Origin: Procambarus clarkii
Taxonomy: Eukaryota; Arthropoda; Malacostraca; Decapoda; Cambaridae
Direction: 5' to 3'
Length of the DNA stretch: 64,000 bases
NCBI RefSeq assembly: GCF_040958095.1
Contig: NC_091160.1
Coordinates: 38,133,996-38,197,995, forward strand
Below, one piece after another: positions 3,899 through 63,528 of the stretch (position 1 is the stretch's first letter; each line of letters opens with the position of its first letter). The position numbers and the translations under genes were made by a program. The notes beneath the pieces were generated by a model that had not been told where the DNA came from, ran no database searches, and saw nothing but the letters and a program-made list of their open reading frames with translations.

Positions 3899-4504
3899 CT
3901 AATTGTTGATGGGCTCACAGACAGGATTCACTTGTGTATGTCTCCATACCGGGGTCCTCAGGCGAGATTTCTTGTTTCTCCTAATCAACATGAAGAAAAT
4001 TATGGTGTTGACGGACATGAGACAAGCGTAGAAGAAGGCTTCGTGAGAGGCTCGGTGCTTGAAGGCCCCCGTGGCAGAGCTCAGGCTGGTTAGTCCTGCA
4101 AAGAGCCACAAGCCGGCAGTAATTGTGAAGAGATTGGCTGCCTGTAGTGAAGACTTCATGGCCATCGGGGCCTGCGAGTAAGCAAAGTCCATGCCAGAGA
4201 CTGTGAAGAGGACATCGCCGATGGTGATGAGGACGTACTGGGGAAGGAGCCACACCATGTGGACGTTTGCAGGGGCCGTCATGGGGAAGAGGAAGACGTC
4301 GGTGGTGGTGATGACGATGTCGTACACACCGTCCTGGTACACTGCAGCCTCTCCAACTTCCACCTCTTCCACCATCACCTTGTACTCCTGGGGACTGATA
4401 CGCTGGAACTCCGTCTTTCCCTCCAGGAGCTGGAAGTTGTGGAGGATGGTGTCGTACGTGAGCGTCACGTTGAGCTCGTTGTGCGCAGGCGCCAACACCC
4501 GCAC
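3899..4504 (-). CDS. Copy A exon 5 (second half of extracellular domain, TM10-TM12, altered C-tail)
   Basis: The exon starts at acceptor GACAG/GTGCGG with [10 protein letters not shown]. It encodes the rest of the extracellular domain, [28 protein letters not shown] (TM10) and TM11-12. After IIFFMLI the reading frame differs from copies B and C and ends in 26 basic and polar residues and a stop (CEPINN). DNA similarity to B continues past this point, so this is a frame change rather than a new exon. Confidence 0.82.
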   Translation of the reverse strand: MRVLAPAHNELNVTLTYDTILHNFQLLEGKTEFQRISPQEYKVMVEEVEVGEAAVYQDGVYDIVITTTDVFLFPMTAPANVHMVWLLPQYVLITIGDVLFTVSGMDFAYSQAPMAMKSSLQAANLFTITAGLWLFAGLTSLSSATGAFKHRASHEAFFYACLMSVNTIIFFMLIRRNKKSRLRTPVWRHTQVNPVCEPINN

Positions 4505-7500
4505 CTGTCAGGGCGAACCAACACAACTGAACAACACCAGGAAATCAGGCCCTAAATTTTACAGAATATGTATTTCTAAGGCACCATCAAATAATATTAA
4601 CAATAACAATGATAATATCAGTAATGATAAATCATTTGAGCAGTGGGGATAGAAGCAACATCTTGGTGAATGACAGACTTGCGCTATGCCCCCCATAACA
4701 TTCTACAAAAGATATTCATCCAGACACTACTGTGTCCTCTAAGGATTTTGTTGCTAAGGAAATTGTCTTAAGATGAAGTGGCATCTTTAGACGATGCAGC
4801 ATCTTAAGAAAAACCAGCATCTGAAGATGCTGGATCAATCCCTGCTCGGCTCCAGTGATTTTATCATTGATAAATCACGCTGTTGTGATTGCCTTGTGAC
4901 TATCAATAATAATAGTAACAAAACTAATAAAAAACTACTTAATAGACCTGTAATAAATGGATCTTATTTATTTGTCAAAAGTATTCAAAAACTTGTTTAA
5001 TACATTTATGAGTATGTGGAAAGTTGTAAAAATCTGTCTATGATAAAGTTTCAATATTTGTAAAAGTAAAAATAATTGCTAGGATATTATCATTCTCTGC
5101 CTGAACTGTGTTGTGAAGCATTATACTCGCCCGTTGTTGTGTTTTATTAATGTATTTTACAGTTGACTTGGCGTCATGGTGACACTTTATGAGACACTTT
5201 CCAGTTGCTAGTTACTTGAAATGATTAGTGCTGAATCTTTAGTAAAGTCTGCTCTCATTGTTAGCAATTAGCCTTTTTACACCCAAGAAACCCAAGGAGC
5301 GGAAATGATTGGGTACGGGGACTCACTTTGGTGTCGGCATCTTCGTCCTTGATGTACTCGAGTGTGGGAGGGAGAGCCAGCACGCCAGTGGAGGTGACAA
5401 GGAGTGTTGTCTCATGGGCACCCAGCACCCTCACTCTCACCTGCCTCATGTCTGGGGCGAGGCAGGAGGCTGTCACCTTGGCCTCCACCTCATCACCATG
5501 TGTGACAGTCAAGCTAGGCAGAACCACCTGGCCTCCGCTCTCCACACTCAGCTGACCGGTCTTGACGAAGGGCACCTCCATCACCATCTGGCAAGGCAGT
5601 GCGTTGTAAACGTGGATTCTCGCCTGCTCTGGAGGAATGAAAGTCTGTTCCACGCTCATGTTCACCAGTGCGTAGACCAGGAAGGCGATGATGGTGAAGC
5701 ACATCCCCGCGATCATCCGTGATGTGGTCTTGGTGAGGACGCCAACGCGGGCCAACAAGGGGTAGACCACAAAATCAAAGACCGGAATGAGAGCTAAAAC
5801 GAGCAGTGGGTTGGCAGTGGGAGACATCTCTGGCGGGATCCTATAGCTGCCCACCTTACCGTCGAGACGTTTGGCCTGGAATATCATACCAGTGAAGGTC
5901 TGATAGAAGAGAGCCCAGAAGAGCGGGAAGGTGCAGAACAGCAGAAGGACACGCAAGGTCACCTTCACGTCCAGCAGCAACTGAGCATCAAATTTGTCCT
6001 GAGCACGGTCAAGCCAGTGCTGCACAGGCTTTCGGTCCTTATCCCAGGTCTTGCGAACCGCGTATGCAACGCAGTGAACAGTTCTTATCATCATTGTGTC
6101 TGGGGGCCCCTCCTTGTACTGCGACCTACCTATAATATTACAAATACATAACAGATAATAGAGATGATGTGAGAGAATTAAAACACACAGACATCACATT
6201 AACTTTATATATCAATGAGAAAATCCACGAGGACAATAAGGTGGACGCGAACGTACGACCTTGGCGTTGCCAAGGCGCATACTCTACTACTAGACCAGCG
6301 TTGACTTGTTAAAGTTATACAACCGGATTTCTACTGCAATCGCAGGATGTCTGGAGGCCCCTACTGAAGCCAGTCCAAATTTTACGTATAACCCACAATC
6401 ACTCGGGTGGAAGGGCAGAGTGGTCCCACACCTTATGCCCCAACTTCAGATACACATAGTGTGTTTCTGTGGCTTTTATGTAAAACCGGGACTGGCTTCA
6501 GTAGGGGCCTCCAGACTTCCTGTGATTTCAGTAGAAATCCGGTTGTATGCCTTTTGCAAGTCAGTGGTGGTCTAGTGGTAGTGTATGCGGCTTGGCAAAT
6601 GCCAAGGTTGTACGTTCTTGTCCTCTTCATTGCCCTAGGGAATTTTCTCATTTTCTGAGACAATTAATTCCACAGCTGACTAATGGTGTACATTGTGTGC
6701 ACTACAGTAGGGAAATCAGCTTGTGAATGCAAGAGTACACACACTACGGTTGTATACAATACGCGTGCAGAACCACATATTGGTTCTAAAATCATTATGT
6801 ATGGACTTGGGTCTATCATGTTGGGTCTCTGATGAGCCTACATTACCAGCAGGCCATTGCTATCACGAGGGTTGTTGTGCATTAAAACTGTAACTTGCTT
6901 AGCTTATTGAATAGTGGGGTTCAGTCCCTGAACCCATTATGTGCCTCTGTAACCCTTTCCACTATACCGTCCACAGGACGGGTATGTGGTGCATAATTAA
7001 TGAACTAATCTAACTAACTGTCCAGTTATGATTAATTAGATCGAGTTAAACATCCTTGTCCTAGAAGCAATCAATAGTCAAGGAGTTGGCCATTGTATTT
7101 GGTGTGCAGTATGACTTTTCTGTCTACGCACAGTGAGAGCGAAGGTAAGGAGACCCATCTTGAATTTCCCAACGACCGCCAAGTCCATAGCCTACAAGCT
7201 AGGGGGAGGGGACATGGATAAGGATAAGTCTACAGGCTAGGGACAAGCCTACGAAAAGGCAAGTGGGACAATCACGTAGGCGCAAGTCTACGTGATTGTG
7301 GGAGGCATCAGTGCCTCTTCCTCAATGGTCAAATTCATAGATCTGACAGCTGGTTCCCCATGAATGCTTGAGAGGTCCCAAAAAAGCCCGCCAAAGCATC
7401 CCTTCTGCCCCTAAAGTTTGCCTAAGCCAGACGTGTGAGGTCTTACTAGATGGGCCAACTAATGGTGCACTACCTGAGCTGTCAAGTGGAGACACTGGGG

Positions 7501-62243: not shown

Positions 62244-63528
62244 CTGTCAGGGCGAACCAACACAACTGAACAACACCAGGAAATCAGGCCCTAAATTTTA
62301 CTGAATATTTATTTCTTAGGCACCATCAGAATAATAATAATAATAATAATAATATTAATAATAATAATAATAATAATAACACCAATAATAATAACACCAA
62401 TAAAGACCAGTGTCACTTCTTTATTACTCAAAGCTATGCTAATAATGTTTTAACAGGTTTATATCAGAATGGCAAAATGTTGAAAAAATAATTCATATCT
62501 ATTATTTTACGCACCACTACCCACCTGTTATTGAGTTTATTGAAGTATCCTATTGTTAAATTGGCGTCAAAGTAACTCAGTTAATGAGACACTTTCCAGT
62601 TGTTAGTTCCATGGAACAATTAGCTGCTGACTATAGAAATTACTCTCTATAGTCTTTGTCGATGTCAGCATAGTGCCTTTTATACATAAGAAACAGAGCA
62701 GAAATGATTGGTTACGGAGACTCACTTTGGTCTCTGCATCTTCGTCCTTGATGTACTCGAGTGTGGGAGGGAGAGCCAGCACGCCAGTGGAGGTGACAAG
62801 GAGTGTTGTCTCATGGGCACCCAGCACCCTCACTCTCACCTGCCTCATGTCTGGGGAGAGGCAGGAGGCTGTCACCTTGGCCTCCACCTCATCACCATGT
62901 GTGACAGTCAAGCCAGGCAGAACCACCTGGCCTCCGCTCTCCACACTCAGCTGACCGGTCTTGACGAAGGGCACCTCCACCACCATCTGGCAAGGCAGTG
63001 CGTTGTAAACGTGGATTCTCGCCTGCTCTGGAGGAATGAAAGTCTGTTCCACGCTCATGTTCACCAGTGCGTAGACCAGGAAGGCGATGATGGTGAAGCA
63101 CATCCCCGCGATCATCCGGGATGTGGTCTTGGTGAGGACGCCAACGCGGGTCAACAAAGGGTAGACCACAAAATCAAAGAGCGGAATGAGAGCTAAAATG
63201 AGCAGTGGGTTGGCAGTGGAAGACATCTCTGGCGGGATCCTATAGCTGCCCACCATACCGTCAAGACGTTTGGCCTGGAATATCATACCAGTGGAGGTCT
63301 GATAGAAGAGAGCCCAGAAGAGCGGGAAGGTGCAGAACAGCAGAAGAACACGCAATGTCACCTTCACGTCCAGCAGCAACTGAGAATCAAATTTGTCCTG
63401 AGCACGGTCAAGCCAGTGCTGCACAGGCTTTCGGTCCTTATCCCAGGTCTTAGTGACTGCATGTGCAATGCATCGAACTGCTCTTATTATCATTTTGTCT
63501 GGGGGCCCCTCCTTGTACTGCGACCGTC
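61590..63528 (-). CDS. SLC15/POT-family oligopeptide transporter-like gene, copy C (last two exons; 5' part outside window)
   Basis: This is the third tandem copy, and only its 3' portion is inside the window. Exons 63528-62726 and 62243-61590 correspond exactly to exons 4 and 5 of copies A and B, with the same boundaries and phases. Together they encode TM7-TM12, the extracellular domain and a C-tail close to that of copy B, four residues longer and ending MERSV. TM7 keeps the tryptophan (FPLFWALF), as in copy A. The intron between them is only 482 bp and holds an AAT microsatellite. The upstream exons must lie to the right of position 64000. Both exons are fully open, so this copy is probably functional. 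Confidence 0.82.
62325..62400. repeat. Imperfect AAT microsatellite in copy C intron 4
   Basis: AATAATAAT runs with CACC interruptions. This is the place where copies A and B have the shorter AATATTAACAAT tract. Confidence 0.9.
62726..63528 (-). CDS. Copy C exon 4
   Basis: This 803-nt exon has the acceptor TACAG/GACGG and the donor ACCAAA/GTGAGT. TM7 reads [15 protein letters not shown], so the tryptophan is kept as in copy A. The extracellular half ends [12 protein letters not shown] run-on reading frame past the donor is intronic. Confidence 0.83.

What the first reader, a model, noticed from the sequence alone, without database searches (positions are those of the whole stretch)
3899..63528. 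Tandem SLC15-like transporters that have lost the canonical proton-coupling residues
Seen: all copies keep the overall PEPT1 layout, and the key residues I could align by eye are changed. ExxER in TM1 reads CxxER (A) or YxxER (B). The TM2 histidine position is alanine in A and B. The FDQQGSRW block after TM7 reads [16 protein letters not shown] or YYHTSTGM, so its Asp and Arg are gone. The TM10 Glu before FSYSQAP is Asp. Known: in SLC15A1 and bacterial POTs these sites carry proton coupling and substrate binding. Inference: this lineage is a diverged POT subfamily with altered energetics or substrate, expanded in tandem.
Basis: partly seen in the sequence, partly recalled or inferred. Interest (0 to 1): 0.75.

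Follow-up and report, generated by a model that had tools for sequence, protein, structure and literature searches.

The report
Crustacean peptide transporters with altered proton sites
This stretch of a probable crustacean genome carries part of a large, recently multiplied family of peptide-transporter genes that keep most peptide-holding residues but have lost several residues that normally let such transporters run on protons, so they may move peptides in a different way.

Summary
The minus strand carries three five-exon genes: A and B whole, C running off the right edge. They are SLC15A1/A2-type transporters; best solved relatives are human PEPT2, rat PepT2 and PEPT1. The genome search found one canonical PEPT with the key residues intact (C82) and 28 exon-4 copies of the diverged family on three contigs; 24 are full-length and open, 13 groups at 99% DNA identity.

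Changed in every copy read: first Glu of ExxER (24 of 24), TM1 base (24 of 24), TM7 Asp (28 of 28), TM2 His (24 of 24). Kept: second ExxER Glu, most of the substrate clamp, two gate salt bridges. A new TM2 Glu is in 23 of 24.

A bacterial precedent, PepTSo2, also lacks the His, base and TM7 acid but keeps both ExxER Glu. Most likely: a peptide transporter with weak, absent or re-routed proton coupling. No assay tests this.

The parts
15717..15932 (-). gene A exon 1 (TM1-TM2 by alignment to PEPT1; CxxER, Ala at His57, Glu at position 60)
8932..9152 (-). gene A exon 2 (K140 kept)
8322..8488 (-). gene A exon 3 (Y167, N171, R206-equivalent kept)
5327..6129 (-). gene A exon 4 (TM7-TM9 and start of extracellular domain by alignment; FYQTFTGM)
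3899..4504 (-). gene A exon 5 (rest of extracellular domain, TM10-TM12 by alignment; Asp at E595)
49338..49553 (-). gene B exon 1 (YxxER, Ala at His57, Glu at position 60)
31157..31377 (-). gene B exon 2
31823..32043 (-). identical second copy of gene B exon 2 inside an exact 668-base tandem duplication; 221 nt, so using both exons in series would break the frame
   Evidence: single copy in the 40.46 Mb twin
30860..31026 (-). gene B exon 3
28314..29116 (-). gene B exon 4 (YYHTSTGM; Trp294 to Asn)
25419..26060 (-). gene B exon 5 (E595 intact)
62726..63528 (-). gene C exon 4 (FYQTSTGM); exons 1-3 lie beyond the window's right edge
61590..62243 (-). gene C exon 5 (E595 intact)
15888..15890 (-). 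gene A codon 15 (TGC), Cys at PEPT1 E23, first Glu of ExxER
15855..15857 (-). gene A codon 26 (TTC), Phe at PEPT1 R34 / PepT2 K64
15786..15788 (-). gene A codon 49 (GCC), Ala at PEPT1 H57 / PepT2 H87
15777..15779 (-). gene A codon 52 (GAA), new Glu at PEPT1 position 60, about one helical turn from the lost His57
5903..5905 (-). gene A Tyr (TAT) at PEPT1 D298 / PepT2 D317

Best explanation
These are members of a repeatedly duplicated branch of animal PEPT-type (SLC15A1/A2-like) transporters. Shown by sequence: they align over nearly their whole length with PEPT1/PEPT2, including the extracellular domain between TM9 and TM10; most residues that hold the two ends of a dipeptide are kept, and so are the residues of two gate salt bridges (PepT2 R206-D342 and D170-K642). 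Changed in every copy read are the TM2 His, the TM7 Asp, its TM1 base partner and the first Glu of ExxER. Inferred: the proteins still bind and carry small peptides by alternating access, but proton binding no longer opens the outer gate in the way described for PepT2. They would be weakly coupled or uncoupled carriers (facilitated transport or exchange), or use a moved proton site, for which the new TM2 Glu at position 60, with the kept E26, E595 and PepT2-D342 equivalent, is the candidate. I lean towards altered or weak coupling with peptides still the substrate; substrate and coupling are untested.
For: Family: Pfam PTR2 E 1.7e-65; human PEPT2 281.8 bits, PEPT1 250.5, against 94.1 or fewer for SLC15A3/A4. 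Changes: E23 to Tyr 22 / Cys 2 of 24; R34 (PepT2 K64) to Phe 24 of 24; H57 to Ala 23 / Gln 1 of 24; D298 (D317) to Tyr 27 / Phe 1 of 28; R303 to Gly 16 / Ser 12 of 28. Kept: E26 24 of 24; R27 23 of 24; Y31 as Tyr 19 / Phe 5 of 24; K140 8 of 8; Y167 and N171 7 of 7; R206-equivalent 7 of 7; D342-equivalent Asp 14 / Glu 14 of 28; N329 28 of 28; E595 Glu 23 / Asp 5 of 28; D170- and K642-equivalents 8 of 8 and 28 of 28. New Glu60 in 23 of 24; Val/Met/Ile in 80 of 80 bacterial relatives; Val or Ser in PEPT1, PEPT2, PepTSo and the canonical gene. Control: the one canonical PEPT found in the same genome shows EFCER, His and FDQQ|GSRW by the same method and keeps E595. Literature, passages read: in PepTSt, Ala at E22 (=E23 by the motif) blocks proton-driven but not counterflow transport (PMC4331665). 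In POTs without the TM2 His, simulations implicate the acid equivalent to D317 in outer-gate opening (PMC11265797). PepTSo2, with Tyr291 at that place in TM7 and no acid nearby, still binds peptide ligands, and the reviewers suggest a modified proton coupling (PMC4331665). Constraint: 24 of 28 exon-4 copies full-length and open; pooled dN/dS 0.58, codon-bootstrap 95% interval 0.39-0.90.
Against: No expression, uptake or structure data. The copies are close relatives (exon-4 pooled dS 0.064), so the residue counts are not independent events. PepTSt E300 (=D298) to Ala abolished both proton-driven and counterflow transport, so Tyr there could also mean a dead or very different carrier. PMC11265797 found the K64-D317 bridge itself transient in simulation and unlikely to matter much for gate stability, so its loss alone says little. 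PepTSo2 lacks His, base and TM7 acid and is filed in the PDB as a proton:oligopeptide symporter, so these losses need not mean uncoupling. W622 is Asn in 28 of 28 and W294 is Asn in 7 of 28, so the pocket and perhaps the substrate have changed. A versus B dN/dS is 0.67 with interval 0.44-1.07, so constraint on that pair alone is not shown; the exon-4 part of the extracellular domain gives 0.76. The AlphaFold model of exon 4 failed (mean pLDDT 38.6), so there is no structural check.
Confidence: 0.5

Rival explanations
1. Proton coupling is kept but re-routed: the new TM2 Glu60 and the retained acid on TM8 (PepT2 D342 equivalent) replace His57 and Asp298 as outer proton site, and E26/E595 do the inner step.
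For: Glu60 is about one helical turn from position 57 and lies between it and Y64 (helix geometry, inference). It is present in 23 of 24 exon-1 copies; the exception (C36:32271698) has three gap openings, one base each, against a near copy over 350 bases, which fits a broken frame. The D342 equivalent is acidic in 28 of 28 and its R206 partner kept in 7 of 7. PepTSo2 lacks His, base and TM7 acid, and a modified proton coupling has been proposed for it. Some plant NPFs without charged ExxER residues still use protons (PMC6288477 passages). Raised from 0.25 to 0.28 after the PepTSo2 check.
Against: No structure confirms that Glu60 faces the cavity. PepTSo2 keeps E23, which here is lost in 24 of 24 and is reported as needed for proton-driven transport in PepTSt.
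Confidence: 0.28
2. Changed substrate: the family moves something other than ordinary di/tripeptides, as many plant NPFs do, with or without protons.
For: W622 to Asn 28 of 28, R34 to Phe 24 of 24, D298 to Tyr/Phe 28 of 28, W294 to Asn 7 of 28 and Q299 to His 7 of 28, at or beside sites that line the pocket or outer gate in PEPT1/PepT2 (that W622 lines the pocket is recalled). 39% identity (A) to the same genome's canonical PEPT, against 53-59% between that (a partial sequence) and the mammalian ones.
Against: R27, Y31 (Tyr or Phe), K140, N171, N329 and E595 (Glu or Asp), aligned with residues that hold the two ends of a dipeptide or sit beside them, are kept in 23 of 24, 24 of 24, 8 of 8, 7 of 7, 28 of 28 and 28 of 28.
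Confidence: 0.2
3. A relaxed, decaying expansion: many copies are non-functional and the losses are degeneration.
For: 4 of 28 exon-4 copies are broken or truncated; A versus B dN/dS interval includes 1.
Against: 24 of 28 exon-4 copies are full-length and open. A and B have no gap in 1947 compared coding bases (the exon-5 tails, which differ in length, were left out), while one aligned block of 1929 bases that spans exon 4 and flanking intron has 24 gap openings. The lost sites agree across copies, though that is largely shared ancestry.
Confidence: 0.1
4. Assembly artefact inflates the family: near-identical copies are unmerged haplotypes. This concerns the count only and can hold beside the other explanations.
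For: C11 40.439-40.460 Mb repeats C11 38.138-38.159 Mb at 96.8-99.95% identity. The PHT-like pair on C1 is an inverted 99.946% repeat.
Against: 13 groups remain at 99% exon-4 identity. The window alone has three different genes in tandem. The residue changes do not depend on copy number.
Confidence: 0.3

Closest known systems
SLC15A1/SLC15A2 (PEPT1/PEPT2), animal proton-coupled peptide transporters
   Same: Nearly full-length match incl. extracellular domain (TIGR00926 381 bits over 4-642), most of the substrate clamp and two gate salt bridges
   Different: 30-33% identity to the mammalian sequences over TM1-9; E23, R34, H57, D298, R303 and W622 replaced; many copies
Canonical PEPT of the same genome (C82, about 9.990-10.021 Mb)
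   Same: Nearest relative in an 8-sequence tree, support 81/83, not starred
   Different: Only one locus found; intact ExxER, His, FDQQGSRW and E595; four introns checked are not shared
PepTSo2, bacterial POT (4lep)
   Same: Lacks the TM2 His (Ser), the TM1 base (Gln32) and the TM7 acid, with Tyr291 in that place; keeps the second ExxER Glu and Arg
   Different: Keeps the first ExxER Glu; bacterial; Ala at position 60
Atypical bacterial POTs such as DtpC (Q1xxE2Y)
   Same: First ExxER Glu replaced, second kept (PMC9309889 passages)
   Different: DtpC lost the Arg; here it stays in 23 of 24, and an animal extracellular domain is present
Plant NPFs lacking ExxER charges
   Same: Expanded POT relatives missing coupling residues; some are passive (PMC6288477 passages)
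   Different: Plant, nitrate or chloride; here one Glu and the Arg remain, as does most of the peptide clamp
SLC15A3/A4 (PHT)
   Same: Same superfamily
   Different: Far weaker match (94.1 bits or less); a PHT-like pair exists separately on C1 (named by eye from its sequence, not placed on a tree)

Membership tests
POT/PTR2 family (PF00854) | match above the curated cut-off | tested here: met
   221.9 bits against 27
SLC15A1/A2 (PEPT) type | closer to PEPT1/2 than to PHT or bacterial POTs | tested here: met
   PEPT2 281.8 bits; PepTSo 104.3; SLC15A3/A4 94.1 or less; grouped with animal PEPTs against 14 bacterial sequences, 100/100, though the tool warns of long branches there
SLC15A1/A2 (PEPT) type | large extracellular domain between TM9 and TM10 | tested here: met
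   one alignment 3-641 to rat PepT2, weak in the domain itself
NCBIfam TIGR00926, oligopeptide:H+ symporter | score at or above the curated cut-off | tested here: not met
   381.3 bits, cut-off 821.6
Proton-coupled PEPT1/PEPT2 | intact ExxER | tested here: not met
   first Glu absent in 24 of 24; second Glu 24 of 24; Arg 23 of 24
Proton-coupled PEPT1/PEPT2 | TM2 His (H57/H87) | tested here: not met
   Ala 23, Gln 1 of 24
Proton-coupled PEPT1/PEPT2 | TM1 base with TM7 acid (R34-D298 / K64-D317) | tested here: not met
   Phe 24 of 24; Tyr/Phe 28 of 28
Proton-coupled PEPT1/PEPT2 | TM10 acid E595/E622 | tested here: met
   Glu 23, Asp 5 of 28
Proton-coupled PEPT1/PEPT2 | proton-driven electrogenic peptide uptake | not testable with these tools
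   needs a transport assay

The most novel reading that the evidence does not exclude
An animal SLC15 branch has become a set of proton-independent peptide carriers (facilitated or exchange): the TM2 His, the TM7 acid with its TM1 base, and the first ExxER Glu are all gone while the peptide clamp is largely kept. It would be a natural proton-free version of PEPT1 and a candidate for the exit step of dietary peptides from gut cells.
Probability: 0.22. Interest if true: 0.75.

Novelty: new variant of a known kind. Interest (0 to 1): 0.5.

Why it matters
Which residues couple protons to peptides in PEPT1/2 has largely been probed with point mutants, which often lose activity (passages of PMC11265797 and PMC4331665). 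A natural series of 13 distinct exon-4 groups (28 copies in the assembly) lacking the His, the TM7 acid and the first ExxER Glu, in a genome that also has an intact canonical gene, would let coupling be tested in proteins that evolution has kept open. It also offers a concrete test of a moved proton site (TM2 Glu60). One review passage gives three POT genes in Drosophila and four in humans (PMC6288477), so this expansion is large for an animal. The basolateral peptide exit of gut cells was called molecularly unknown in a 2023 paper, which itself proposes MCT13/SLC16A13 for it (PMC10458055 passages); a proton-free PEPT paralogue is another kind of protein that could do this, though nothing here shows where these genes are expressed.

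Tried and rejected
AlphaFold of exon 4 with three window sequences: mean pLDDT 38.6, so no fold search was run on it.

Tree order inside animal PEPTs: C82 plus window 81/83 in 8 sequences; unresolved with 13 bacterial loci added, p-AU 0.483 for that clade, with a long-branch warning. In the larger tree the free search put the canonical gene with the mammalian ones at only 37/73.

The 80 bacterial relatives were the best 80 of 500 confirmed, found with patterns that include an intact ExxER and ranked by likeness to PepTSo, so their 80 of 80 for E23 and H57 is partly by selection; I use them only for position 60 and, 13 of them, as outgroup. A first pass misplaced 12 of 80, probably by taking the wrong frame, and was replaced. 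POTs less like PepTSo were looked at in one Shewanella genome only: of the two further POTs read there, one (PepTSo2) has Ser at H57 and no TM7 acid, the other Gly at H57 and Glu at D298; position 60 is Ala and Thr. A fifth, weak match in that genome was not read. In one search the aligner put Gln at D298 of PepTSo2; the review also calls Gln290 the equivalent and says Tyr291 sits in that place.

Census rows dropped: two exon-4 fragments that are the far ends of two broken copies (30 matches for 28 genes). Exons 2 and 3 were read in only 8 and 7 matches, because most clusters were not fetched whole; one of the 8 is the exon-2 duplicate in B.

Literature: the listings of searches showed no crustacean or arthropod SLC15 expansion lacking these residues. 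Searches listed 10 of 53, 20 of 1,368 and 12 of 2,154 papers; SLC15 or SLC15A1 occurred in none of those listed. Subscription papers are mostly not held, so this does not show that nothing is in print.

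
Full report
What is there. The copies in the window lie on the - strand. Exon limits with consistent GT-AG borders and phases give gene A (15932 down to 3899, 670 aa), gene B (49553 down to 25419, 682 aa) and the last two exons of gene C (63528 down to 61590). Gene C's first three exons lie just right of the window and a fourth gene lies just left of it (exon 1 C11:38126519-38126734, exon 5 C11:38114543-38115145), so the local array has at least four genes. Protein A matches Pfam PTR2 (E 1.7e-65) and TIGR00926 'oligopeptide:H+ symporter' over 4-642, but at 381.3 bits against a cut-off of 821.6. 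Its best solved relatives are human PEPT2 (281.8 bits), rat PepT2, human PEPT1 and another PEPT1; SLC15A3/A4 score 94.1 or less.

The genome. The window is C11:38133996-38197995 of a 4.03 Gb assembly. Searching with the POT family, with exon 1 and with human PEPT1 gave one canonical PEPT locus on C82, a PHT-like pair on C1 and many copies of the window family; the tool's counts are lower bounds. Counted by exon on the stretches fetched: 24 exon-1, 28 exon-4 and 28 exon-5 copies on C11 (38.11-38.21 and 40.44-40.50 Mb), C16 (34.01-34.12 and 35.56-35.90 Mb) and C36 (24.29-24.30 and 32.06-32.30 Mb). Of the 28 exon-4 copies 24 are full-length and open; these fall into 13 groups at 99% DNA identity. 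Some copies may be unmerged haplotypes: C11 40.439-40.460 Mb repeats C11 38.138-38.159 Mb at 96.8-99.95%.

Residues. Numbering is human PEPT1; the PepT2 residues from PMC11265797 that I looked up fell on the expected letters of the aligned rat sequence. Changed: E23 (Tyr 22, Cys 2 of 24), R34 (Phe 24 of 24), H57 (Ala 23, Gln 1 of 24), D298 (Tyr 27, Phe 1 of 28), R303 (Gly 16, Ser 12 of 28), W622 (Asn 28 of 28). Kept: E26 24 of 24, R27 23 of 24, Y31 as Tyr 19 / Phe 5 of 24, K140 8 of 8, Y167 and N171 7 of 7, R282 27 of 28, N329 and D341 28 of 28, E595 as Glu 23 / Asp 5 of 28. Gate salt bridges by PepT2 number: R206 7 of 7, D342 as Asp 14 / Glu 14 of 28, D170 8 of 8, K642 28 of 28. New: Glu at position 60 in 23 of 24, the exception being C36:32271698, which differs from a near copy by three gap openings in 350 bases. 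Position 60 is Val, Met or Ile in 80 of 80 bacterial relatives near PepTSo, and Ala and Thr in two other Shewanella POTs. The canonical gene of the same genome has EFCER, the His, FDQQ|GSRW and E595, so the method finds intact residues where they exist. The copies are closely related, so these counts describe one lineage, not many independent events.

What this means for mechanism. PMC11265797 (passages) describes protons in PepT2 acting first at H87 and D342 to open the outer gate, then at E53/E56 and E622; it adds that in POTs without the His, simulations implicate the acid equivalent to D317. Here the His and that acid are both gone, together with the TM1 base (K64/R34) that pairs with it; the pair has become Phe/Tyr. 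The same paper found that pair's bridge transient. PMC4331665 (passages) reports that Ala at PepTSt E22, E25, R26 or Y30 stops proton-driven uptake but leaves counterflow, while Ala at E300 (=D298) stops both; it is not consistent about R33. So loss of E23 points to weak or absent coupling with peptide recognition kept, while the D298 change warns that substrate handling may have changed too.

A precedent. The review says that PepTSo2 has Gln32 for the TM1 base and no acid in that part of TM7, with Tyr291 in its place, and may use a modified proton coupling. I checked a Shewanella protein that matches the solved PepTSo2 chain (4lep, 1133 bits): it has Ser at the His position and keeps both ExxER Glu. 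So the loss of His, base and TM7 acid together, with a Tyr in TM7, exists in a bacterial POT that binds peptides and is filed as a proton symporter. What the window family adds is the loss of the first ExxER Glu, the new Glu60, an animal setting and the expansion. The new Glu60 is the obvious candidate for a moved proton site; that it faces the cavity is inferred from helix spacing (57, 60, 64), not shown.

Are they working genes? Exon-4 pooled dN/dS over 13 groups is 0.58 (codon-bootstrap 95% interval 0.39-0.90; the pairs are not independent); exon 5 gives 0.335 over its first 180 codons, and exon 1 dS 0.081 with dN 0.026. A versus B over 649 codons is 0.67 (0.44-1.07), not clearly below 1. 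A and B show no gap in 1947 compared coding bases, the unequal exon-5 tails left out, against 24 gap openings in one 1929-base block spanning exon 4 and adjacent intron. So constraint is moderate overall and there is some decay (4 of 28 exon-4 copies).

Origin. In an 8-sequence tree the family sits next to the same genome's canonical PEPT (81/83, not starred) on a branch of 1.42 changes per column against 0.27 for the canonical gene. With 13 bacterial loci added, the family stays with animal PEPTs (100/100, under a long-branch warning) but its place among them is open (p-AU 0.483 for canonical plus window). Introns of the canonical gene near residues 36, 168/169, 300/301 and about 325 (gaps between tblastn pieces) are absent from A and B, whose introns at 80/81 and 161/162 fall inside unbroken canonical stretches. 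That fits a retro-copied or very old paralogue; neither is shown.

Known or new. It descends from PEPT1/2-type transporters and probably works like them in holding peptides, but three defining features of the proton-coupled kind were tested and not met, so I do not file it as a proton-coupled symporter. Single losses and the PepTSo2 combination are known; DtpC lacks the first Glu (PMC9309889), and plant NPFs lack the motif and some are passive (PMC6288477). The full combination in an expanded animal family was not in the papers that my searches listed, some of which were capped lists.

Noticed in passing
30978-31645 and 31644-32311: Exact tandem duplication of 668 bases carrying gene B exon 2 twice and a piece of exon 3. 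The 40.46 Mb twin has one copy, so it is a private duplication or an assembly artefact.
   Followed up: partly
35599-40437: 15-base satellite, 322.6 units, in intron 1 of gene B; it creates long spurious open frames on both strands, up to 1535 aa.
   Followed up: partly
7858-8178: 26-base tandem repeat in intron 3 of gene A; staggered matches suggest a different length in its C11 40.44 Mb twin.
   Followed up: no
819-2192, 10158-12628, 41359-42567: Retroelement fragments: RNase H, endonuclease and reverse transcriptase domains.
   Followed up: partly
L012 (C1:47.78 Mb) and L013 (C1:48.41 Mb): A PHT-like SLC15 gene in an inverted pair, 99.946% identical over 9276 bases; a duplication or an assembly artefact.
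   Followed up: partly
L011 (C82): The canonical PEPT has Lys at PEPT1 R282, which the diverged family keeps as Arg in 27 of 28.
   Followed up: no
C36:32067410, C36:32263569, C16:35628597, C16:35750622: Exon-4 copies with stops, frame breaks or a missing start, beside intact ones.
   Followed up: partly
L165 (Shewanella, PepTSo2): Its TM7 stretch FYQQMSTS resembles the window family's FYQTSTGM more than PEPT1's FDQQGSRW by eye; chance or convergence was not tested.
   Followed up: no
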